In this document: positions 8,398-22,441 of the stretch, one piece after another
Numbering within the stretch: position 1 is the first letter of the stretch
Layout of the letters: each line of letters opens with the position of its first letter
Source: Nitrososphaerota archaeon
GTDB taxonomy: Archaea; Thermoproteota; Nitrososphaeria; Nitrososphaerales; Nitrosopumilaceae
Direction: 5' to 3'
DNA length: 64,000 nucleotides
Assembly (NCBI GenBank): GCA_028867595.1
Contig: JAGWGB010000004.1
Span: forward strand, 1-64,000
Translations under genes and position numbers: made by a program
Notes under the pieces: model-generated
The model's database searches: none
Told to the model about the DNA's origin: nothing
The model's input: only the letters and a program-made list of their open reading frames with translations

Positions 8398-9348
8398 ATG
8401 AAAGGTAATGGACTTGTTATCATTCCTGTAATTTTCGTAGCAATATGTGTCATAACATTTCAGTATGCATATGCGGATGACCAAATTACGATACCGCTAG
8501 GGGCGTCACACCAGAGCACTGGAGTTTTTTATTCTCCATCTCTCATAGACATTAAAGTAGGAAGTACCATAACTTGGAAAAACGATGACACTGTAGCACA
8601 TACTGTATCAACTGGGACTCCAAATCTTGGGACAGATGGAAGAATAGATAGTGGTATAATTAACTCGGGCAAAACTTTCTCTTATACGTTTGATAATGCT
8701 GGAGTATATGGTTACTATTGTCTTATTCATCCTTGGATGACTGGAACAGTTAATGTCGAAACAGACTCGCCACCACAGACGCCGGTCACACTTTCAATCT
8801 ATACTGATAAAACTGATTATCATGTAGGAGATAATATCACAGTATCAGGACAAGCGTCTAGGTTTGTTCCAAATGAGATAGTCACAGTATGGGTAACTGA
8901 CGTTTCTGGAAATGGTGTTGCATCAAATCACGTATCAACTGAAACATCGGATCAGTTCTCTACAACAATAATGCCAACTAACTTGTGGATTCCAGGAAAA
9001 GAGTATGTAGTTAATGCTCAATATGGGGCAAGAGGAACAATTGCCACTACTAACATACAGTACGAATCTGGGAGCTTGGCAATGCCAAGTTGGATCAAAG
9101 ATAGTGCAAGCCAATGGTCAACTGGTCAATTATCAGACAAATCATTTTCTACAGGGATACAATATATGATAAAGCAGGGTATTGTTCAATCTCCGAAACT
9201 CTATTTTGTAACAGATTCCAACTTTCATATCCCTACATGGGTAAAAAACACTGCAACATGGTGGGTTCAAGGAACTGTATCTGATGCTGACTTTGTAAGT
9301 GAAATTCAATATCTTCTCACGTCGGGAATTATCAGGGTTAGTCCATGA
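8398..9348 (+). CDS. secreted cupredoxin (plastocyanin-like) with Ig-like segment and two C-terminal 'WW..G.(i/v)SD..F...IQY(L/M)' modules
   Basis: TITWKNDDTVAHTVSTG...YGYYCLIHPWMTG copper site; IPTWVKNTATWWVQGTVSDADFVSEIQYLLTSGII. Confidence 0.85.
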   Translation: MKGNGLVIIPVIFVAICVITFQYAYADDQITIPLGASHQSTGVFYSPSLIDIKVGSTITWKNDDTVAHTVSTGTPNLGTDGRIDSGIINSGKTFSYTFDNAGVYGYYCLIHPWMTGTVNVETDSPPQTPVTLSIYTDKTDYHVGDNITVSGQASRFVPNEIVTVWVTDVSGNGVASNHVSTETSDQFSTTIMPTNLWIPGKEYVVNAQYGARGTIATTNIQYESGSLAMPSWIKDSASQWSTGQLSDKSFSTGIQYMIKQGIVQSPKLYFVTDSNFHIPTWVKNTATWWVQGTVSDADFVSEIQYLLTSGIIRVSP

Positions 9349-10824: not shown

Positions 10825-12825
10825 ATGATTCCGCCTGGCATAGTTGAACGCATGTATAGGACATTTTATGAGATATCGCCTGATCTAGTTTGCACATTGG
10901 ATGATGATGGAATAGTATTGGATGTAAACCAAAGAATGCTTGATCATTTTGGCTACTCTAAAGACTATGTGCTCGGTAGATCATGTTTTGACTTTATTGC
11001 AGATGGATACAAAAAAACCGCATTAGATGGATTCAGGGAGATGAAGGAGAAAGGAATTGGACCTATGATAGAACTGTCATTGATCAAAAATGGCGGTACC
11101 ACATTTTTTGGATTGTGTAGAGGTGCAAGAGTATCCGATGACGAGAAACAGAACGGATATCTCATAACAATACAAGACATTTCACCTATTCGTGAAGCAC
11201 TAGAAAAAGCAAAACATGCAGAAGAGCAGGCAAAAGCAAGATACGACGAACTAAAAAAGACTCATGAATCCCTGCTGGTACTAGAAAAAAAATACCAAAA
11301 TCTCTATGAGAATGCTCCTGATCTATTGCGTACAATTGATCTCTATGGCATAATAGTGGACTGCAACGAATCCTATGCAAAAAACCTTGGATATTCAAAA
11401 GAGGAAATTATTGGCAAATCGCTTATTGAACATACGTCTAAAAAAAGCTATGATGAAATGATGAAAGGAATTGATGAATGGAAGTCTAGCGGAACTATAT
11501 CAAATAAAGAAATTTGGATGAAAAGAAAAGATGGATCTGAGTTTCCCACCCTGCTCTCTGGAGTTAGCATTTATGACGAAAACGGACAAGTTGTTGGTAG
11601 AACGGTCTCACTTAGGAACATTACTGACATCTACCAGGCAAAAATGATAATAGAACAAGATCAATCAAAAATAAACGAGCAGTATGAAGAACTAAAAAAG
11701 ACAAATCTCTTGCTTGGGATGACTGAACAAAAATACCGAAGTCTGTACAACACTTCTCCTGATCTACTACGTACAATTGATTCTGATGGTACAATCACTG
11801 ATTGCAACTATGCATATGCAAAAAACCTTGGCTATTCAAAAGACGAAATTGTAGGAATGCAAATCTATGATCACACTGCAGAAAAAAGCCTTGATAATAT
11901 GAAAGAGATTTTTAACTTGTGGAAAAGTGGTACTAGTGTAGTCAATAAAGAAATTTGGATGAAAAGAAAAGATGGTACAACTTTTCCTGCCTTGTTGAGT
12001 GCAACCATATTTTATCAAGGCAGCAAGATGGGAAGTAATACGGTAATTAAAGACATTACTGATCTATATGATGCAAAAAAGAAGATAGAGGAAAATGAGA
12101 TGCGTCTACGAGAGCAATACGAAGAGCTACGAGACGTCGAAAAATCAAAAGAAGAATTTCTCACCATGATAACACACGAGCTGAAAACTCCTCTTGTGCC
12201 AATACAAGGCTATGTTGACATATTGCTTGCAGAAAAGTTTGGCACGTTAACCAATGAACAAAAACATAGGCTTGAGATAATAAAATCCAACGTAAGATAT
12301 CTCATGAAACTAATGTCTGACCTGTTAGATGTGCAAAAAATTGAACTTCGTCAATTAAAGCTAAATAAAGAAAACAATAACCTTGCTGATATAATGCGTG
12401 AAGTAATAGAGAATGTTAAACCAGATGTAGAAAAACACAACATCAAAATTTCGGCAAATCTCCAACCTGGTCTTTTTTGTATATGTGATAAGTTAAGAAT
12501 GGCCCAAGTCATAAATAATTTGATTAATAATGCATTAGATTTTTGTCCTAAGATAAACGGCCAGATATTTATAAAATTACATGCTGATGGAACAAACTAC
12601 AAGATCATAATAAAAGACAACGGAATTGGAATATCAAAAAGTAAACTTGATAAAATTTTTGTTAAATTCTATCAAGTTGATACATCTACCACTAGGGAAC
12701 ATGGAGGTTCAGGTATAGGGTTGGCAGTGTGCCGTGGAATCGTAGAAGCACACGATGGTAAAATATGGGCCGAATCAGAAGGTGAGGGAAAAGGCACTGA
12801 AATCCATATCTTGCTGCCTCAATAA
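10825..12825 (+). CDS. sensor histidine kinase with three PAS domains, cytoplasmic
   Basis: three PAS units (YEISPDLVCTLDDDG; YENAPDLLRTIDLYG; YNTSPDLLRTIDSDG), HisKA ITHELKTPLVPIQGY, HATPase NALDF..DNGIGIS..GGSGIGLAVCRGIVEAHDGKIW. Confidence 0.93.
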   Translation: MIPPGIVERMYRTFYEISPDLVCTLDDDGIVLDVNQRMLDHFGYSKDYVLGRSCFDFIADGYKKTALDGFREMKEKGIGPMIELSLIKNGGTTFFGLCRGARVSDDEKQNGYLITIQDISPIREALEKAKHAEEQAKARYDELKKTHESLLVLEKKYQNLYENAPDLLRTIDLYGIIVDCNESYAKNLGYSKEEIIGKSLIEHTSKKSYDEMMKGIDEWKSSGTISNKEIWMKRKDGSEFPTLLSGVSIYDENGQVVGRTVSLRNITDIYQAKMIIEQDQSKINEQYEELKKTNLLLGMTEQKYRSLYNTSPDLLRTIDSDGTITDCNYAYAKNLGYSKDEIVGMQIYDHTAEKSLDNMKEIFNLWKSGTSVVNKEIWMKRKDGTTFPALLSATIFYQGSKMGSNTVIKDITDLYDAKKKIEENEMRLREQYEELRDVEKSKEEFLTMITHELKTPLVPIQGYVDILLAEKFGTLTNEQKHRLEIIKSNVRYLMKLMSDLLDVQKIELRQLKLNKENNNLADIMREVIENVKPDVEKHNIKISANLQPGLFCICDKLRMAQVINNLINNALDFCPKINGQIFIKLHADGTNYKIIIKDNGIGISKSKLDKIFVKFYQVDTSTTREHGGSGIGLAVCRGIVEAHDGKIWAESEGEGKGTEIHILLPQ

Positions 12826-12883
12826 CTCAAAGAGAAACTTATCCACTTGAATAAAAACGCCTGTAATTGTAATACTATTTCAT

Positions 12884-12925
12884 TAACAATGTTCCTTAAC
12901 AAAGTGTCACAATTTTTTATAAATT
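12884..12925 (+). promoter_or_regulatory. conserved promoter element copy A plus TATA box
   Basis: TTAACAATGTTCCTTAACAAAGTGTCACAATTTTTTATAAATT; TGTT-CCTT-AACA inverted repeat. Confidence 0.6.
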
Positions 12926-12943
12926 ATCTGTGTATTGGAAATT

Positions 12944-13087
12944 ATGAGGATAACAAACAATGTTGTAGTTGCATCAATCCTGATGTTGGCTATGCCTTTC
13001 TATGGGGATATTTTTTCAGCAATTGCTCAAGTATCAGCAAAATCACTGATGCCAATGCTGTTATCCTCGTTAGGTATTGCTTCCTAA
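12944..13087 (+). CDS. small exported/membrane peptide, 47 aa (not in ORF track)
   Basis: ATG..TAA translates to MRITNNVVVASILMLAMPFYGDIFSAIAQVSAKSLMPMLLSSLGIAS; lies ~20 nt behind a TATA box and element copy A. Confidence 0.45.
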   Translation: MRITNNVVVASILMLAMPFYGDIFSAIAQVSAKSLMPMLLSSLGIAS

Positions 13088-13298
13088 TTGTAACCTATCA
13101 GTGTGTTGATGAAATGTTTGTTAAAATCAAACATTCTTTCATATATCTTGATCTAGCGAATAATCATGAGCTGCATTTCTTGTAAATGATCTGATTTGGA
13201 ATTAATATTAGACAACAATGAAAAGAAACGGGTTTCGGAATGTATCTCAATGTAAAACAATTAAAAATCGAGAAATTTTTGCCAATTGCAATTCATTC

Positions 13299-13316
13299 AA
13301 AAATTAATTAATTTTT
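13299..13316. promoter_or_regulatory. 18-bp perfect palindrome AAAAATTAATTAATTTTT just upstream of a TATA box
   Basis: read directly; followed by TTGCTTATATAC. Confidence 0.45.
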
Positions 13317-13354
13317 AGTAATTGCTTATATACAAGCAAACAGACTCGTCTTTA

Positions 13355-14323
13355 GTGAGAATCAGCCTTAAAGGATTATTGTTATTCGGTGTTTTGATTA
13401 GCGCTGCCGGCATATCTCCAGCATTTGCTGCCTCTGGCGGTTTTATGGCTCAGCCAAATTCAATGGATGCCAACTCTTCTATGGGTATGACTAATAATAC
13501 AACTCCTGCTAATTTACCTCCTCCAGCTTACTTGGTGACAAATGCTTCTGGCAATTCCGGTACTGTCGTAAGCATGAATACTGCTACCCCTGGAATCTCT
13601 GTTGCAACAGACAAGGCGTCATACAATGATGGAGACAAGATAATGATTACAGGTAAAACTCGAGATTATCTGGGAGACACACCACTTACACTAATTATAA
13701 GAAATCCTGTTGGAAATGTAGTTTCAATAAACCAGATTCCAGTAGGAGCAGACAAAACCTTTTCATCAAGCCTCACTGCTGGTGGTGCCTTGTGGCAGGC
13801 TGCCGGTACATATTCTGTTTATGTGCAGTTTGGAGGGCAAGAAAGGTCTGCTACAACAACGTTCCAATTCTCCGGCTCACATGTTGGGGCTGGAAATACA
13901 ATTCAAGTGGACGGTACCAATTCTTCAGTGACTTATACTATAACAAATGGTAAAGTGCTAGATATCAAAGCAGATACCAACTCAAAGTCGCTTATTGTAT
14001 CAATTCAAACAACCGGTGATGGTGCTTTGACCATTTCTATGCCTAGAACATTGATTGATGCAAAGAAGACCGATGGCTCAGATGATCAATACTTTGTACT
14101 AAATGATGGTCAGGAAAATGACCAATTCCAAGAGACGACCACAACAAACACTGACAGGACTCTCCAAATTCCATTCTCTGACGGAACATCCCAGATAGAA
14201 ATAATCGGAACATTTGTAGTTCCAGAGTTTGGTACAATAGCAGCAATGATACTTGCAATTGCGGTAATATCCATAATCGCAATATCTGCCAAGACTGGAT
14301 TGAGATTTACACCTAAGGTGTAA
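13355..14323 (+). CDS. PEFG-CTERM secreted protein (paralogue of 27243..28175)
   Basis: signal peptide; VPEFGTIAAMILAIAVISIIAISAKTGLRF. GTG at 13355 preferred because TTG at 13322 lies in the TATA box. Confidence 0.8.
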   Translation: MRISLKGLLLFGVLISAAGISPAFAASGGFMAQPNSMDANSSMGMTNNTTPANLPPPAYLVTNASGNSGTVVSMNTATPGISVATDKASYNDGDKIMITGKTRDYLGDTPLTLIIRNPVGNVVSINQIPVGADKTFSSSLTAGGALWQAAGTYSVYVQFGGQERSATTTFQFSGSHVGAGNTIQVDGTNSSVTYTITNGKVLDIKADTNSKSLIVSIQTTGDGALTISMPRTLIDAKKTDGSDDQYFVLNDGQENDQFQETTTTNTDRTLQIPFSDGTSQIEIIGTFVVPEFGTIAAMILAIAVISIIAISAKTGLRFTPKV

Positions 14324-14439
14324 ACCTCACCATAAAATTTTCAACAACATACTACGGCTATTAATGTCAAAATTAGACACAAACACAAGTGTCTTCTGTT
14401 ATATTACACGTATGATCTAGTCATGATATCAGTTGGACC

Positions 14440-15459
14440 ATGGTTCTTGATCTCGATAATGCGAAAACATCTGACATAACTGCTATTAAAGCAGACAATC
14501 TGCAAAAAATATATCGTGATAATATTAGGGCAGTAGATGGAATAAGCTTCTCAGTTAGACAAGGTGAAATATTTGGGCTACTCGGTCCAAATGGAGCAGG
14601 AAAAACTACCACAATTAAGATGATGATAACTCTCACGAAAGCAACATCTGGACAATTACATGTATTTGGAATCGATGTTTCAAAATCTCCAGAAGAAGTA
14701 AGAGAAATGCTGGGATATGTTCCACAAAGCATTTCTGTTGACGGTGATCTTACCGCCTATGAGAATTTACTCATATTTGCTAAACTTTCATACGTTGACA
14801 AAAAGGAGCGTAATGAAAGAATCCAAAATGCACTGGAATACATGGATCTTTCAGAGAGGGCAAATGATCTTGTCAAACGTTATAGCGGGGGAATGATGCG
14901 CAGATTAGAAATAGCGCAGGCTCTTGTAAATCGTCCAAGATTATTACTCTTGGATGAGCCAAGTATTGGTCTTGACCCTTCTTCAAAAAAACAAGTGTGG
15001 AAAAGCATCAAGCAACTAAATCAAGAATTCGGTACTACAATTTTAATCACTACGCATGATATGAATGAGGCAGATGAACTCTGTGACAGAATTGCCATAA
15101 TGTCTGAAGGTAAGATAGCAATCATGGGTACTCCTGCAGATCTGAAAAAAGGCGTAGGTGGAGACATTATCACGGTTAATCTTGGATCTGCATGTCCATC
15201 CATATCATTTCCAAAAGAGATAGGTACAATTATCCTTGATAATGAAAAATCCATTCAAATTTTGACCACAAATGGTGAGGAAGCAATTCCACTCATTGCC
15301 GATTTTTTTAAAAGTCATGAAATTAAAATGGATTCCATCTCAATTAACAAAGCAAACTTGGATGACGTCTTCATGAAGTACGCTAAACGTAGACTGAGCA
15401 ATGACGTATACAAGACTGTACGCAGTACGCGTAGGGATTTTACGAGGCACTCGAGATGA
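14440..15459 (+). CDS. ABC transporter ATP-binding protein (DrrA-like)
   Basis: Walker A GPNGAGKTTT, signature YSGGMMRRLEIA, Walker B LLLLDEPSIGLDP, H-loop THD. Confidence 0.93.
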   Translation: MVLDLDNAKTSDITAIKADNLQKIYRDNIRAVDGISFSVRQGEIFGLLGPNGAGKTTTIKMMITLTKATSGQLHVFGIDVSKSPEEVREMLGYVPQSISVDGDLTAYENLLIFAKLSYVDKKERNERIQNALEYMDLSERANDLVKRYSGGMMRRLEIAQALVNRPRLLLLDEPSIGLDPSSKKQVWKSIKQLNQEFGTTILITTHDMNEADELCDRIAIMSEGKIAIMGTPADLKKGVGGDIITVNLGSACPSISFPKEIGTIILDNEKSIQILTTNGEEAIPLIADFFKSHEIKMDSISINKANLDDVFMKYAKRRLSNDVYKTVRSTRRDFTRHSR

Positions 15460-16226
15460 ATATTGTAAGATTTGTCAAAAGCTCTGTCACAGTAGCTGAA
15501 ATGGAAGCAAGGAAGATCCGCCATGATTCAACTGAGCTTTGGACTAGAATAATACAACCAGCGCTGTGGCTCTTGATCTTTGGAGAGACCTTTAACGCCA
15601 TAAGGGCAATGCCATCAGGCAACTTTTCGTACTTGCAGTTCATTACTCCTGGAATTTTAGCACAATCTGTCTTGTTCATATCTATCTTCTATGGGATAAC
15701 TGTAGTATGGGAAAGAGATGTTGGGATAATCACGAAACTACTATCGACGCCCTCTCCTCGCTCATCCATAGTGTTAGGAAAATCACTTGCGGCAAGCCTT
15801 AGGGGAGTTTTTCAGGCCATAATGATATTTGGTCTTGCATTGTTGTTAGGAGTCAAGATAAGGCTTGACTTGCCTGACATTTTAGGAATTTTTGCAGTAG
15901 TTATACTGTTTGCCATGTGCTTTTCTAGCCTTTCAATGCTGCTTGCCTCTTTTATGAAGACGAGGGACAGGATGATGGGAATAGGTCAGGCACTTACCAT
16001 GCCACTTTTCTTTGCAAGCAATGCCATATACCCAATTTCTATAATGCCAGTTTGGCTCCAATACATATCGATAGCAAATCCGCTCAGCTATGTAGTTGAT
16101 GCAATTCGATCTATGTTACTTTCTGGAACTTATGCAAATTTACCTGTAGATATACTGGCATTGCTTATTTCCACGACTATTTTTGTAGTGTTGGCTTCTA
16201 AAACAATAAAACAATTGCTTGAATAG
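15456..16226 (+). CDS. ABC-2 type permease (DrrB-like)
   Basis: overlaps the preceding ATPase; six-TM ABC2 profile with LSTPSPRSSIVLGKSLAASLRG..NPLSYVVDAIR. Confidence 0.88.
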   Translation: MNIVRFVKSSVTVAEMEARKIRHDSTELWTRIIQPALWLLIFGETFNAIRAMPSGNFSYLQFITPGILAQSVLFISIFYGITVVWERDVGIITKLLSTPSPRSSIVLGKSLAASLRGVFQAIMIFGLALLLGVKIRLDLPDILGIFAVVILFAMCFSSLSMLLASFMKTRDRMMGIGQALTMPLFFASNAIYPISIMPVWLQYISIANPLSYVVDAIRSMLLSGTYANLPVDILALLISTTIFVVLASKTIKQLLE

Positions 16227-16320
16227 CATCACAAGTAAAAAATACCTTGCAATTCAAAAATGTGTGATGGTATAGTATCGGAACAATTTGAAATAAAAAT
16301 AGAAAAAGTGGTCCTGAAGT

Positions 16321-16845
16321 TTATTCTTGGAATCCACTTGGAGTTGTTGTGCTAGGAGCTGTACCACTAGGTGTTTGTGGTTTTGACCAACTTCCTGACA
16401 TGCCCATATGTTTGTGCATCATAATTCCGTAACCACCTCTCATACCGCCAATCAAAGAGCCTAAGCTCAATGGATGTCCTTGTGATGTCTTGAGTACTTG
16501 GCCATTTCCTGCATCTACTATTACAGAGTAGACGCTCTTGCCGTCAGTTACCTTGAAGGCATAAACGACATAGCCTTGTTGTACGACAAGACCTCCGGAC
16601 AACACTTGTCCACCAGTTACTTGTCCTGCAGCTGTGTTTGCAGCAGTAGTAAAGCTGGTCTTCACACTAGACAAAATATTCTGTGGAAGATTGATTGAAC
16701 CTTGTATTGGTGTTGGTCCCTGACCGGAACCAGATGGTGATGTGGTCTGTGCATATGCCAGTGAGCTTCCAACTGTAGCAATGATTGCTACACTGAGAAT
16801 CACGGCAAGCATTTTTTGATGCGCCTTTAGATTTTGTAGGTTCAT
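16321..16845 (-). CDS. secreted PepSY-like domain small protein
   Basis: signal peptide; YVVYAFKVTDGKSVYSVIVDAGNGQVL PepSY-like segment; MHKHMGM tail. Confidence 0.65.
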   Translation of the reverse strand: MNLQNLKAHQKMLAVILSVAIIATVGSSLAYAQTTSPSGSGQGPTPIQGSINLPQNILSSVKTSFTTAANTAAGQVTGGQVLSGGLVVQQGYVVYAFKVTDGKSVYSVIVDAGNGQVLKTSQGHPLSLGSLIGGMRGGYGIMMHKHMGMSGSWSKPQTPSGTAPSTTTPSGFQE

Positions 16846-16865
16846 TCTGACATGGTATATCTATT

Positions 16866-16910
16866 CAGTTTATAATGGATTGCGACACCATGTTAAGGAA
16901 CAAGGTTAGT
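16866..16910 (-). promoter_or_regulatory. conserved promoter element copy C plus TATA box
   Basis: minus strand CTAACCTTGTTCCTTAACATGGTGTCGCAATCCATTATAAACT. Confidence 0.6.
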
Positions 16911-17095
16911 GATTATATAACAATCTCACATTTCATCATTCTTATGCATGGATGTGCTCTCGTGCATTTCTGATTTGTAATAAAATAATACGTGAAATTC
17001 TAATTGTAAAAATAATTTTTAATATTAATTTTGATGCACGTGATTTTTACTTTATATTAATTTGGATTTTTATTGTAAATAAAAAACAAAAAGTT

Positions 17096-17629
17096 CTAAT
17101 CTTTACCTAGCTCGTCATCTATCTTGTCTTGTGTAGATTTGTATTTTTTATATCGTGTATTCCATTTTGCAAAGAAACTGTATTCCTTGAGTGCTACAAA
17201 AAGCAGCACCGCAGAAAATATTATGCAGATGAAAATGAATATTTGTATTCCTATGAATATGGGTGCGTCTTGATGCATGAATCTGGGAGGGTGGAAAGGA
17301 ATCTCATTGATGACATTACTTCCATTCTTTTCAACTATGTAAAATTGTGCTCCATTAGGCATCATGTTGCCTGCCGTCATATTGCCAAATTCTTCGTTAT
17401 TTCTTTCAAGATGAGTAATGCTATATCTAGGATGACCAAGCAATATGCCTCCCATCACTAGAGCAACAGGAGCAAAAATTAGGGCAGAAGCAATAAAGAT
17501 TAGAAATATACGCCTTGAGCTATTTGTGTGACTAAGAAGATCATCTATCATCTTAAACAGATTTTCTGGAGCCTCTTTATTGGCATCTTTGTTAGGTTCT
17601 TTATCGTTATTTTGAGGAGGCTGTGACAT
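17096..17629 (-). CDS. two-TM membrane protein, hypothetical
   Basis: hydrophobic segments RIFLIFIASALIFAPVALVMGGILL and IFIGIQIFIFICIIFSAVLLFVAL. Confidence 0.65.
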   Translation of the reverse strand: MSQPPQNNDKEPNKDANKEAPENLFKMIDDLLSHTNSSRRIFLIFIASALIFAPVALVMGGILLGHPRYSITHLERNNEEFGNMTAGNMMPNGAQFYIVEKNGSNVINEIPFHPPRFMHQDAPIFIGIQIFIFICIIFSAVLLFVALKEYSFFAKWNTRYKKYKSTQDKIDDELGKD

Positions 17630-17669
17630 TTAGATGAACAACTCCCTTATGTACAAATAAAACATTTCG

Positions 17670-17975
17670 CTAACTTTGTTCCTTGTCACTTTTTTCACTC
17701 CTTGGAAAAATTTCTTCGTAAGGCTCTAAAACCATCTTGCAAAACTGTCGCCCTTTCTCTGTTACTGAATATTTTATCACTTTTTTGTTTCCCCATGGTA
17801 TTTCTGTTCTTTTTATGAAGCCTTTACGTTCTAGACTCTCTAGTATATCTTTATGCTTCATCAAATTCAAACCACAATAACTCAACAAATTTGTCTGATT
17901 GAGTTCCCCAAACTCTGTTAACTTTAGGATGATATCCTTTCTTATATAGACTCGATCACGATATTCGTGTGACAA
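17670..17975 (-). CDS. winged-helix transcriptional regulator (101 aa)
   Basis: GELNQTNLLSYCGLNLMKHKDILESLERKGFIKRTE..IKYSVTEKGRQFCKMV wHTH pattern. Confidence 0.75.
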   Translation of the reverse strand: MSHEYRDRVYIRKDIILKLTEFGELNQTNLLSYCGLNLMKHKDILESLERKGFIKRTEIPWGNKKVIKYSVTEKGRQFCKMVLEPYEEIFPRSEKSDKEQS

Positions 17976-18056
17976 GGATATCGCATTTGTTGGATGTAAA
18001 ATTCTGTATTAAGCTTTTACTCTACTTGAGAGGTTGTTCTTGATTACAGATATGCA

Positions 18057-18095
18057 TTAACAATGTTCCTGAACAAGGTTTGACAATTATTTAAT
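18057..18095 (+). promoter_or_regulatory. conserved promoter element copy B
   Basis: TTAACAATGTTCCTGAACAAGGTTTGACAATTATTTAATT; TGTTC-CT-GAACA inverted repeat, between the divergent regulator and the ABC operon. Confidence 0.6.
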
Positions 18096-18362
18096 TCCAC
18101 TAATTAAATGAAAGATACGTGGGCATGATTTTGAGTTCTACCGTGGAGAAAACTAGAGTTTTTCGCAACCCCATAGATCTTAGCGCATGCTCTTCTGGTG
18201 GATATGCCCACAAAAATCGTCTTCATATTACAAAACATCATAGGTTTGTAACACAGTATGGTTTCTTCCAATTTTCTATGAAAGACTATTTTTACAATCT
18301 TGGTAATATTTTTGTAAACTCATCCAATTATACTGGAAAAATAAACCGGAATGTAGAGCGAA

Positions 18363-19127
18363 TTGATTAGAGATAAATCAGGTACTAAATCCAGCTCAAC
18401 CGCAATGGTAAATGAACCAAAACCAGATGAAGTAAATTCAAATTCAACAGCATTAACAGTGAAAAACCTATCAAAAATTTACGACTCGGCAGCAGGCAAA
18501 GTAGTTGCATTAGACAATATCAATTTCGCTGTAAAGAAAGGAGAGTTTGTTTCCATAGTGGGCCCGTCAGGAAGTGGCAAGTCTACCCTCCTTAACATGA
18601 TAGGGGCGCTGGACAGACCAACATCTGGGAACGTCTACATAAATGATGTGGATATTTTTTCTCTAAATGATTCTGATATTGCCACAATGAGAAATAATCT
18701 GATTGGATTTATTTTCCAATCCTTTAATCTAATCAACAGGACAACCGTATTAAAAAATGTAAAACTACCGGGAACCATATCTGGAATGTCTGCATCCGAG
18801 GCCAATGAGCGTGCAATGAGAATTTTGGAGGCTCTGGGTATTGCTGACAAGGCAACACAAAAACCGGTTAATCTGAGCGGAGGTCAGCAGCAAAGAGTTG
18901 CGATAGCAAGATCGCTGGTAAATAATCCTGCAATAGTGTTAGCAGACGAGCCTACGGGAAATCTCGACACTAAAACTGGAGAGGATGTTTTTGATATGCT
19001 CAAGACACTATCGCACAAGTTTAAACGTACAATAATAATGGTTACACATAATCCAGAACTTGCAGAATCCACTGATAGATCTATATTGATAAGAGATGGG
19101 AGAATCGACAAAGATGTCATCAACTAG
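18363..19127 (+). CDS. ABC transporter ATP-binding protein (LolD/MacB-type)
   Basis: GPSGSGKSTLLNMIGALDRPTSG, LSGGQQQRVAIARSLVNNPAIVLADEPTGNLDTKTG; ATG at 18405 is an alternative start. Confidence 0.93.
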   Translation: MIRDKSGTKSSSTAMVNEPKPDEVNSNSTALTVKNLSKIYDSAAGKVVALDNINFAVKKGEFVSIVGPSGSGKSTLLNMIGALDRPTSGNVYINDVDIFSLNDSDIATMRNNLIGFIFQSFNLINRTTVLKNVKLPGTISGMSASEANERAMRILEALGIADKATQKPVNLSGGQQQRVAIARSLVNNPAIVLADEPTGNLDTKTGEDVFDMLKTLSHKFKRTIIMVTHNPELAESTDRSILIRDGRIDKDVIN

Positions 19128-21192
19128 TTTTAGAAAAAATCTGACTCTGAAGATTGTAGTCGTAGCCTTAGTTGCATTATTATTTGTACCAATGTTTAAC
19201 GCACCTTCAAATGCACAAGTGCAAAATAATTGCGCGGCTCCACTGACAACCACTATAGAGGAATTCTATAATGGACCAATAGCAGTAGACGCGTATTGGG
19301 TTAACCAAGGAACATCGTCAGCTAACAACTCAACTTCAAATAACCCAGTAAAAAAAGAAGTTGGACCAGGTGAAGGTATAGAGGAATTTGCTGTTGTATT
19401 AGTTAACAGAGGAAACTTTCCAATCAATTCAATTACAGGCTTTTTGAATCTCCCCGCTGGATTTGCCCCAACTGGAGAAAGCAAGCTGCCACAACTTCTT
19501 CAACAATACAATCCTGCCTCAAAGGTAGCAAGCCACTATGCGCTTTCCACTTTTTACGGTACTGTGCAGCCTGGAGGTACATTCACCTTGTACTTTAATG
19601 TCAATGTGCTGGATACAGCACAGGTACAAACATACAATACACAACTCGTAGCTAACTATTACATACTGCAAAGTAACCAGGCCGGTACCTATATTGAAGA
19701 TTGCACCTCGGCTATACTTCAAATTCCGTTGGTTCTTCCAGGTAAGGTTGTCCTAGATGTGACATCCCCTGACAGTAATATCACGCCATCACAAAGTGAT
19801 CCAATTACAATAACAATTCAGAACAAGGGTTCAGCTCCTGCAACCGGAGTCATAGCTACTATAACAAATCTTGGTCAAAAAGGAAATTCTGGCTCAGGAA
19901 GCAGTGGTACATTAACACTATCATCAACAACTACTAACATTGTAAATCTAGGAGCAAATCAATTTAACTTGGGTACTATACCAGCTGGCGGTTCTGCAAA
20001 TATTACCACTACAGTTTTTCCTTCTAGTTCTGCAGCAGGTCAAACGCAAGATGTCTCAATAGGGCTTTCATATGAAAATGCATGGGGAGCATCAGAAAGC
20101 ACCGCTCTGAATACCGGACTGGTAGTTAGCCCTATTCCGCCGGAATCATTAAGCCTCAATTATATAGGAAATACCACTTCGCCAGTAATTACCTCTGGAA
20201 ATCTAGCTAACCTCAATTTTGCAGTGTCAAATAACAGTACTGCTGAAGCATCAAATGTAGTAATATCTCTAGTTCCACAATCAACATCTGTATCAGTTGT
20301 GGGTCAGTCCACATGGACAATACCAAAACTGGAACCTGGACAACAGCAGTATCTGTCTACCCAAGTGTTTGCAGCAAACTCTTTGATTGATACTCCGACT
20401 TCCTTTACCCTTACGGCAAATTACGTGGCAAATGGACAGACTGAGACTAACTCCTTAACGTTAGGTGCGTTTGTAGTTGGCGATATCAAATTGCAGATAT
20501 ATGGTTTGGCAATAAGCACCGTGGGTAATTCACCGCAAATTGCAGGCAGTCTGCTAAACCAGGGAAGCACGACTGGGCTTTATGGCACAATACAGCTAGC
20601 TCCATCTCCACTGCTTGATGCTATAAGGCAAGCTAGAATGGCTAACGGCAATGGTTCCAATTATACTTCGTCATTGCCACAAGCTGACGCTCAATCATCA
20701 TTTGGTCAAGGAGGACAAGGTGGTGGATTTGGTGGAGGACAAGGTGGACGTGGATCCGGTGGCGGAGCTGGTGGGCGTGGAATGGCATCGACTCAACAGT
20801 TCTTGGGTGACCTTACCGCAGACTCTCCTATACCATTTAGTATACCAATTTACGGTTTGAATCTACTTCCACCTGGGAGCTATCCCGTATCATTCAAAGT
20901 TGTGTATGCTGATGATCTCAAGAACATTCATACAGTTACTCTGACTCAAAATGTGATGGTTGCCAGAAGTACATCTACACATGTGAAAACGCAAACCTCA
21001 ATTATTGATGAAATTCTAGGTAATACTACACTTCAACTTGCTATTGGTGTTTCTATCGCAGGTGCTATAGCTGCAGTTATAATAATTCGAAAGCGAAAAT
21101 CTCGTAAGAAACTAAAAATGCTTACTGGAAACGATACTGATATTGTGACTGTCCTAAAGGACACTGATAAGAAACAAAATGAATCCAAGTGA
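19114..21192 (+). CDS. secreted S-layer/CARDB-like repeat protein with Gly-rich linker and C-terminal TM
   Basis: signal peptide, repeated NKGSAPATGV/SNNSTAEASNV Ig-like units, GQGGQGGGFGGGQGGRGSGGGAGGRG, C-terminal TM; ORF track opens at 19096. Confidence 0.8.
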   Translation: MSSTSFRKNLTLKIVVVALVALLFVPMFNAPSNAQVQNNCAAPLTTTIEEFYNGPIAVDAYWVNQGTSSANNSTSNNPVKKEVGPGEGIEEFAVVLVNRGNFPINSITGFLNLPAGFAPTGESKLPQLLQQYNPASKVASHYALSTFYGTVQPGGTFTLYFNVNVLDTAQVQTYNTQLVANYYILQSNQAGTYIEDCTSAILQIPLVLPGKVVLDVTSPDSNITPSQSDPITITIQNKGSAPATGVIATITNLGQKGNSGSGSSGTLTLSSTTTNIVNLGANQFNLGTIPAGGSANITTTVFPSSSAAGQTQDVSIGLSYENAWGASESTALNTGLVVSPIPPESLSLNYIGNTTSPVITSGNLANLNFAVSNNSTAEASNVVISLVPQSTSVSVVGQSTWTIPKLEPGQQQYLSTQVFAANSLIDTPTSFTLTANYVANGQTETNSLTLGAFVVGDIKLQIYGLAISTVGNSPQIAGSLLNQGSTTGLYGTIQLAPSPLLDAIRQARMANGNGSNYTSSLPQADAQSSFGQGGQGGGFGGGQGGRGSGGGAGGRGMASTQQFLGDLTADSPIPFSIPIYGLNLLPPGSYPVSFKVVYADDLKNIHTVTLTQNVMVARSTSTHVKTQTSIIDEILGNTTLQLAIGVSIAGAIAAVIIIRKRKSRKKLKMLTGNDTDIVTVLKDTDKKQNESK

Positions 21193-22441
21193 TATCTTTT
21201 CTCTTGCATATGATGCACTTGTAGATAGAAAAGTTAGAACAATACTTACCGTATTGATGGTAGTACTAGGGGCAAGCCTTGTAGTAGTGATAAATGGTCT
21301 AAGTGCTGGACAGTCTGCATTCTTGCAAAAACAGCTAAGCTCTCTTGCCTCTAATGTTATCTATGCCTCATCTGGACAGCGTTCGTATTACGGCGGCGAA
21401 TCATCACAGGCGTCTTTGATCGTCAATGATGTGATAGCAAATAAAATCAGGACACTACCATACGTTACAGATGTTGTTCCGCAATATTCTGGTTCAGTAA
21501 CAATTGATTCGTATGGCAATGTTCAGCATGTTTCTGTAGTTGGGATGGATCCTACCAAGTTGACAGTCATGTTACCGAATCTAGTATTTGTTGATGGTTC
21601 TACACTTGCACCAAATGATAGGTCAGCAGCTGTCGTAGGAGATACAATAGCCAACCCTCCTGGGTCAACTACACCATTTGTGATAGTGGGTCAGACTCTT
21701 AAAATAACTTATAGTTACTCTGATTCTACAGGTAAACAGCAACAGGAGGTTAGGAATTTTCTTGTAACTGCAATAATGAAACCTTCTGGAAACACAAGAA
21801 TTGATAACGCCCTTGTGATAAACTCCGATGCCGCAAATCAACTCTTACGTAAATCTGGAAGATATGATTCCTTGGTTATACAAACTACTGATGACACTTA
21901 TGTGAATACAGTTCAGCAAGAGATCACTGGTATCTATGGAAAAAATATCGGCATAACCATTCCTCAGGCATTTTTACAGGTAAGGCAACAAACAGCCCAA
22001 GGAAATGCAATGTTTGTAGAAATGATTGGGTTCATTGCTTTGGTTGTTGGAGCCGTAGGAATCGTAACTACACTTTACAATTCAGTGACAGAGAGAATTC
22101 GTGAGATTGGCACCATGAAGGCAATTGGTGCCCAAAATTCATCAATATTGGCACTCTTCTTGGTTGAAGCCGCTTTAATTGGAGTAATGGGTGCTACTCT
22201 AGGTCTAGCTATTGGAGTTGTTGGAGGTTACGCAATGACAAGCTTTCCCTCACATACTGCTGGAGGTCCAGGTGGGTTTGGTCCCGGTGGTGGTAGTATC
22301 AGTTCTTTTCCGCCAATCTTTCTTCCAGAAGATCTAATCAAAGTCTGGCTTTTATCAGTGTCGTTGGCAGTTGGTGCAGGAATTTTTCCTGCATGGAAAG
22401 CATCAAAATTATCTCCTATGGTAGCACTGAGACGAGAATAA
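21179..22441 (+). CDS. MacB/FtsX-type ABC permease
   Basis: N-terminal VRTILTVLMVVLGASLVVVINGL, C-terminal VTERIREIGTMKAIGAQNSSILALFLVEAALIG. Confidence 0.9.
   Translation: MNPSDIFSLAYDALVDRKVRTILTVLMVVLGASLVVVINGLSAGQSAFLQKQLSSLASNVIYASSGQRSYYGGESSQASLIVNDVIANKIRTLPYVTDVVPQYSGSVTIDSYGNVQHVSVVGMDPTKLTVMLPNLVFVDGSTLAPNDRSAAVVGDTIANPPGSTTPFVIVGQTLKITYSYSDSTGKQQQEVRNFLVTAIMKPSGNTRIDNALVINSDAANQLLRKSGRYDSLVIQTTDDTYVNTVQQEITGIYGKNIGITIPQAFLQVRQQTAQGNAMFVEMIGFIALVVGAVGIVTTLYNSVTERIREIGTMKAIGAQNSSILALFLVEAALIGVMGATLGLAIGVVGGYAMTSFPSHTAGGPGGFGPGGGSISSFPPIFLPEDLIKVWLLSVSLAVGAGIFPAWKASKLSPMVALRRE

What the first reader, a model, noticed from the sequence alone, without database searches (positions are those of the whole stretch)
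12884..18095. A ~35-bp promoter element repeated three times around the transport island
Read directly: copy A (12884, +) TTAACAATGTTCCTTAACAAAGTGTCACAATTTTTTATAAATT; copy B (18057, +) TTAACAATGTTCCTGAACAAGGTTTGACAATTATTTAATT; copy C (~16866-16910, -) CTAACCTTGTTCCTTAACATGGTGTCGCAATCCATTATAAACT. Consensus roughly YTAACMWTGTTCCTKAACAWRGTKTSRCAAT followed closely by a TATA-like box. The core TGTTC(C)T(K)AACA is an inverted repeat, as expected of a dimeric wHTH operator. Copies precede a 47-aa exported peptide, a PepSY protein, and the divergent region between a winged-helix regulator (17670..17975) and the ATPase/S-layer-like/FtsX operon. Inference: a local regulon controlled by that regulator.
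Basis: partly seen in the sequence, partly recalled or inferred. Interest (0 to 1): 0.66.

Follow-up and report, generated by a model that had tools for sequence, protein, structure and literature searches.

The report
Nitrosotalea winged-helix regulon promoter element
A short palindromic DNA switch sits at a fixed distance before the start codons of a family of cell-surface genes in acid-soil ammonia-oxidising archaea, and it travels with one small winged-helix gene that probably binds it, giving a directly testable regulon in organisms whose gene regulation is almost unknown.

Summary
The three copies are real (12883+, 16891-, 18057+) and far beyond chance. A fourth, single-unit copy (17658-17680, -) overlaps the winged-helix gene's stop codon and faces its neighbour, a two-helix membrane protein. 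The genome belongs to Nitrosotalea. The module occurs in 36 of 37 genus members, usually several per genome, before PepSY proteins, large Ig-like surface proteins, tiny exported peptides, a second winged-helix protein, a 76-aa protein and the MacB-like operon. Outside the genus, 7 of the 11 genomes with the best matches carry one within 0.6 kb of the 17670..17975 orthologue; distant-paralogue loci have none. Position just upstream of BRE/TATA suggests activation. Binding, sign and signal are untested. New regulon of a known kind.

The parts
12880..12924 (+). Element A: palindrome 12885-12906, TATA about 12915-12923; ATG at +64 (12944)
   Evidence: R1 E=1.1e-12
12944..13087 (+). 47-aa exported peptide, target of A; orthologues (41-52 aa) carry the element in other Nitrosotalea
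16869..16912 (-). Element C: palindrome 16907-16886, TATA about 16877-16869; ATG at +67 (16845)
   Evidence: R1 E=6.4e-12
16321..16845 (-). Secreted PepSY-type protein, target of C; 19 homologous rows among the dispersed sites
   Evidence: Pfam PF03413 at 23.9 bits vs cut-off 24 here, 26.5 bits in a homologue
17096..17629 (-). MP177: predicted two-helix membrane protein with conserved N- and C-terminal tails; downstream partner of the wHTH gene
   Evidence: no Pfam or NCBIfam match; alignment A3
17658..17680 (-). Element D: single unit AACAAAGTT, then AGCGAAAT, then TATA GTTTTA; overlaps the wHTH stop codon; MP177 ATG at +69
   Evidence: exact match to the single-unit pattern; same spacing in all 38 orthologous loci where found, +62 to +70
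17670..17975 (-). Winged-helix protein (101 aa, TTG start), proposed binder of the element
   Evidence: HTH_45 E=3.6e-7; Sso10a-like fold; co-localisation
18054..18097 (+). Element B: palindrome 18059-18080, TATA about 18089-18097; GTG at +65 (18119)
   Evidence: best site in genome, R1 E=3.4e-14
18119..18370 (+). Leader ORF of the MacB-like operon (83 codons, GTG start); frame kept in 12 related loci, start codon GTG or ATG
18363..19127 (+). LolD/MacB-type ABC ATPase, first large gene under B (true start uncertain)
19120..21192 (+). Exported S-layer-like (COG1361-type, by eye) protein of the B operon
   Evidence: no confident family match
21179..22441 (+). FtsX/MacB-type permease of the B operon
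   Evidence: PF02687 and PF12704

Best explanation
The copies are operators of one transcription factor, the small winged-helix protein encoded at 17670..17975, placed directly upstream of the BRE/TATA of leaderless genes. Each AACNWNGTT unit would be bound by a dimer, and full targets have two units in a fixed arrangement, so two dimers or a tetramer would sit beside TFB/TBP and most likely recruit them (activation). Targets are mainly secreted or surface proteins: PepSY proteins, Ig-like surface proteins, exported peptides and the MacB-like exporter operon. The regulator's neighbour, the two-helix membrane protein MP177, has a single-unit promoter and probably couples a cell-envelope signal to the regulator. 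Shown: the element, its fixed geometry, its genus-wide targets, and co-localisation with this regulator in other families. Inferred: binding, stoichiometry, activation, and MP177 as signal partner.
For: Four strong sites in 1.68 Mb, then a gap to E=1.3e-4. 36 of 37 Nitrosotalea genomes have matches. Extra-genus best matches lie 53-568 bp from the wHTH orthologue in G053, G079, G096, G139, G140, G294 and G300. Family-level outgroup loci L144, L147, L148 and L151 score 23.9-38.2 at the locus against simulated maxima of 3.3 or less, while loci of the more distant 53-59% identity homologues (L297, L298, L299) score below their simulated maxima. Start codon: 51 of 66 distinct sites have an ATG-ORF of at least 35 aa at +62 to +69; B-type sites have GTG or ATG leader ORFs there and MP177 starts at +62 to +70 after element D. 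Element D is kept in L144-L146, where it lies outside the wHTH coding sequence, so it is conserved as DNA. The invariant QT.LLSYCGLNL..H stretch fits a conserved recognition surface. Archaeal activators typically bind just upstream of the BRE (PMC5512572).
Against: No binding or expression data. Some orthologue loci have no full element nearby (L135, L136, L145, L146, L149, L213 and others). G002 has elements but no detectable orthologue, and G029 and G272 only weak or fragmentary matches; G002 and G029 are incomplete, but G272 is rated 95% complete. The best extra-genus matches in G085, G230 and G271 are partial and far from the orthologue. The variable positions of the two half-sites show no covariation after thinning. 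Spacing fixed to the TATA box does not exclude repression.
Confidence: 0.76

Rival explanations
1. The same protein binds the same element, but as a repressor that blocks TFB/TBP.
For: The operator ends about 9 bp before the TATA box, close enough to overlap TFB; PadR- and MarR-like winged-helix folds are often repressors.
Against: No site lies over the TATA box or start site. The palindrome-to-TATA spacing is the same in nearly all sites, which fits contact with the basal factors; two units upstream of the BRE resemble the ArnR and EarA activator arrangements.
Confidence: 0.22
2. A different regulator binds the element, such as the 68%-identical paralogue at C115:98601, the 95-aa HTH_45 protein that carries an element itself, or an unlinked factor.
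For: Several related winged-helix proteins exist per genome. The 95-aa protein is preceded by the element in at least 7 genomes. G002 has elements without a detected orthologue.
Against: Outside the genus the element tracks this orthologue, not the distant homologue. In G139, which has two homologues, the element is beside the closer one.
Confidence: 0.12
3. The element is an unregulated strong core-promoter variant recognised by a particular TFB.
For: It is fused to BRE/TATA at constant distance and precedes leaderless genes.
Against: A 22-bp palindrome upstream of the BRE is not a BRE. It occurs only 4 times at strong score in this genome and is restricted to a narrow set of gene families.
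Confidence: 0.05
4. The copies are products of recent DNA duplication or a small mobile repeat.
For: Three similar copies lie within 5.2 kb.
Against: Similarity stops at the module edges, each copy has its own conserved orthologues at the same positions in other species, and orientation always faces a gene.
Confidence: 0.01

Closest known systems
ArnR/ArnR1 and the ArnR boxes of Sulfolobus acidocaldarius (PMC6396743)
   Same: HTH regulators of cell-surface structures; two inverted-repeat boxes upstream of BRE/TATA, both needed for binding; two transmembrane helices in the system.
   Different: ArnR has HTH and transmembrane parts in one protein and box TCGAC-N5-GTCGA. Here the winged-helix protein is a separate soluble protein next to a two-helix membrane protein, and the unit is AACNWNGTT. 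No homology between them was tested.
EarA of Methanococcus and Pyrococcus (PMC5512572)
   Same: Archaeal activator with several short boxes directly upstream of the BRE.
   Different: Four 6-bp boxes at one operon (fla). Here a fixed two-unit palindrome recurs at many dispersed targets.
Sso10a / HTH_45 winged-helix proteins (PF14947, NF053610; PDB 4hw0)
   Same: Fold: Foldseek probability 1.00 to 4hw0, rmsd 1.8 over 82 columns; HTH_45 above its gathering score.
   Different: Sso10a proteins are named as chromatin proteins; the NCBIfam Sso10a score is 30 against a cut-off of 60, and this one is tied to a specific operator.

Membership tests
HTH_45 winged-helix family (PF14947) | Profile match above the gathering score over the whole domain | tested here: met
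   30.5 bits vs 25.5, residues 6-81
HTH_45 winged-helix family (PF14947) | Dimer through the C-terminal helix | not testable with these tools
   The monomer model shows a C-terminal helix 73-89; no dimer was modelled
Sso10a chromatin protein family (NF053610) | Score above the NCBIfam cut-off | tested here: not met
   30 bits vs 60
ArnR-type membrane-bound one-component regulators | HTH and two transmembrane helices in one polypeptide | tested here: not met
   The 101-aa protein is a single winged-helix domain; the two helices are in the separate neighbour MP177
Archaeal BRE-upstream activator/operator systems (working likeness: ArnR, EarA) | Operator directly upstream of BRE/TATA at constant spacing | tested here: met
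   Palindrome columns 6-27, TATA about columns 36-44, start codon mostly at +63 to +69
Archaeal BRE-upstream activator/operator systems (working likeness: ArnR, EarA) | Activation shown by regulator deletion or box mutation | not testable with these tools
   No expression data at hand
Transcription-factor regulon (comparative-genomics criteria) | Motif conserved upstream of orthologous genes and co-localised with the regulator across taxa | tested here: met

The most novel reading that the evidence does not exclude
The winged-helix protein and MP177 form a two-gene envelope-sensing system, in effect a split version of membrane-bound ArnR. MP177 holds or releases the regulator in response to stress on the cell surface, and the regulon remodels the surface of acid-soil ammonia oxidisers. 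The pair (identified here across several families) would be a new kind of archaeal membrane-coupled signalling module.
Probability: 0.3. Interest if true: 0.76.

Novelty: new member of a known kind. Interest (0 to 1): 0.57.

Why it matters
Transcription regulation in ammonia-oxidising archaea is nearly uncharted; text searches of the held open-access library found no described element of this sort in Nitrosotalea. This gives a concrete regulator, operator, core-promoter geometry and target list, which one EMSA or one reporter could confirm. The targets suggest an envelope or surface response in a genus known for growth in acid soil, and the fixed start-codon distance gives a tool for finding leaderless genes, including very small ones that annotation misses.

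Tried and rejected
(1) Element D as a protein-coding coincidence (wHTH C-terminus EQS-stop): rejected, because the DNA persists in L144-L146 where it is downstream of the stop codon, at the same distance to MP177. (2) Covariation of the variable half-site positions as proof of symmetric binding: inconclusive; weak in the full set (p 0.016-0.035), gone after thinning. (3) C170:28324 and C82:191001 as further sites in this genome: rejected, E 0.02-0.15, no second unit plus TATA. C79:8069 (E=1.3e-4, ATG at +65) is left open. (4) A structured RNA in the leader after B: it contains GTGGGCAT...ATGCCCAC, but the reading frame is kept in 12 loci, so a leader ORF is preferred; the RNA was not tested further. 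(5) PDB sequence search for the regulator: only marginal hits, uninformative. (7) Literature searches for a described regulon in Nitrosotalea or Thaumarchaeota: none found.

Full report
Check of the observation. The three copies are at 12883-12901 (+), 16891-16909 (-) and 18057-18075 (+). With up to three mismatches the core is found three times in the window and 0.21 times in shuffles. A matrix trained only on other genomes' sites, with anything over 80% like the local ones removed, still ranks exactly these three at the top (48.2, 44.5, 42.7), against a maximum of 24.6 in 30 simulated windows; the fourth-ranked place is element D, described below.

Anatomy. Alignment of 37 sites from the genus is gap-free over 46 columns. 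Across 143 distinct sites the near-fixed letters are TAAC (columns 5-8), TGTT (11-14), AACA (19-22), GT (25-26), AA (32-33) and TT (38-39). A BRE-like CAAT stretch and a TATA box follow at constant distance. Because sites were selected with a matrix, the degree of invariance is somewhat inflated; the symmetry and spacing are not produced by that selection. A covariation test between the half-sites was inconclusive.

Start codons. Among 66 distinct sites (the dispersed set plus this window), 51 have an ATG-initiated ORF of at least 35 codons at +62 to +69 from column 1, with peaks at +64 and +67. This places the start codon about 25 nt after the TATA box, the geometry of leaderless transcripts (inference from established archaeal promoter knowledge). 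Element A: ATG 12944 at +64, 47-aa exported peptide. Element C: ATG 16845 at +67, PepSY-type protein. Element B has GTG 18119 at +65: an 83-codon ORF whose frame is kept in 12 related loci (start GTG, or ATG in L119 and L120) and which overlaps the start of the ABC ATPase frame; in the N. devanaterra branch the same position begins a micro-ORF of about 19-25 codons.

A fourth element. The sequence AACAAAGTTAGCGAAATGTTTTA at 17658-17680 (-) is one unit plus spacer plus TATA, facing MP177 (17096..17629), whose ATG lies at +69. It overlaps the stop codon of the winged-helix gene, which might suggest protein-level conservation, but in L144-L146 the regulator ends earlier and the same DNA is still there, intergenic, at the same distance from MP177. 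In this genome the single-unit pattern (one mismatch allowed) finds only D and B, and it finds D beside the regulator in nearly every Nitrosotalea genome.

Genome-wide scan. Model R1 (sequence only, from the 37 sites) finds four strong sites in the 1.68-Mb genome: B 3.4e-14, A 1.1e-12, C104:96791 1.4e-12 and C 6.4e-12. The next is 1.3e-4. The C104 site precedes an 853-aa secreted surface protein. E-values are rough, and R1 was trained on these sites too, hence the leave-out test above. All but one of 37 genomes in the genus match; the exception is 61% complete. The genus is Nitrosotalea, judged from the titles of records holding orthologous loci, such as N. devanaterra LN890280 and N. bavarica.

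Targets. Proteins downstream of the dispersed sites fall into few families: large Ig-like surface proteins (20 rows), PepSY-type secreted proteins (19 rows, several paralogues per genome), a 95-aa HTH_45 protein (10), a 76-aa protein without family match (9), the 41-52-aa exported peptides (5) and DUF6659-like proteins (2). Rows include a few duplicate fetches of one site. The MacB/LolD-type operon has its element at the regulator locus in most genomes.

Regulator. The protein at 17670..17975 is a winged-helix HTH_45 protein. Its AlphaFold2 model (mean pLDDT 86) resembles the centromere-binding protein AspA, Sso10a-2, and MarR/PadR-type regulators. Across 20 orthologues from several families the QT.LLSYCGLNL..H stretch is invariant. 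Of 11 genomes outside the genus whose best R1 match has E of 1e-4 or better, seven have that match within 0.6 kb of the orthologue: 53, 113, 182, 439, 440, 558 and 568 bp. If position were random, a distance of this order would be expected about once per thousand genomes of this size (simple estimate). Of the other four, three are partial matches far from the orthologue and one (G272) has only a 30-residue orthologue fragment. Loci of the more distant homologues (53-59% identity) have no element. In outgroups the conserved core is regulator, MP177, element, secreted protein.

Mechanism. Most likely the regulator binds the two units cooperatively as dimers next to the BRE and recruits TFB/TBP. 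Archaeal activators typically bind upstream of the BRE (PMC5512572), and the ArnR pair of boxes, both needed for binding, is the closest described arrangement (PMC6396743). Binding, activation and oligomeric state are inferred. MP177, with two predicted membrane helices, conserved tails and a variable loop that is missing in outgroups, is a candidate signal partner; this is inference from neighbourhood only.

Limits. Several orthologue loci lack a full element. G002 has elements without a detected orthologue and is incomplete. The ABC-2 transporter and the PEFG-CTERM protein between A and C have no element of their own, so membership of the whole island in the regulon is not shown.

Novelty. 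An undescribed regulon of a known kind; no description was found in the held open-access papers, which is not a complete literature search.

Noticed in passing
window 18119-18370 and B-type loci L111-L121, L122-L143: The MacB-like operon begins with a leader ORF at +63 to +69 after the element: about 68-85 codons in this branch, about 19-25 codons in the N. devanaterra branch, with a recurrent C-terminus I/LDE/GF. It may be a small protein or a translational attenuator.
   Followed up: partly
window 18119-18205: Inverted repeat GTGGGCAT...ATGCCCAC near the predicted start of the B transcript; L112 has GTGGGCAC...GTGCCCAC, a change on both sides, but other loci break it.
   Followed up: no
window 17670-17975: The regulator has an invariant cysteine (C34) just before the predicted recognition helix and a nearly invariant one (C79); a thiol-based sensor is conceivable.
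   Followed up: no
G006:C1:1348939, G015:C3:195189, G016:C15:7476, G031:C33:23837, G007:C33:18445, G003:C36:5700: AACATAGTTAGAAAAGTATTGTA recurs identically in several Nitrosotalea genomes: a possible further single-unit site with unknown target.
   Followed up: no
L139:1478 (+): In N. bavarica an element variant precedes a 239-aa protein with a 90-residue match to the cupredoxin protein at 8398..9348 of the window.
   Followed up: no
L114 and L150 (Nitrosotalea sp. TS): The regulator locus is present twice in one genome, the second regulator copy being interrupted (G017:C3:26812 has TGA and TAA).
   Followed up: no
window 10825-12825: A triple-PAS histidine kinase without an adjacent response regulator in the ORF list lies directly upstream of element A.
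   Followed up: no
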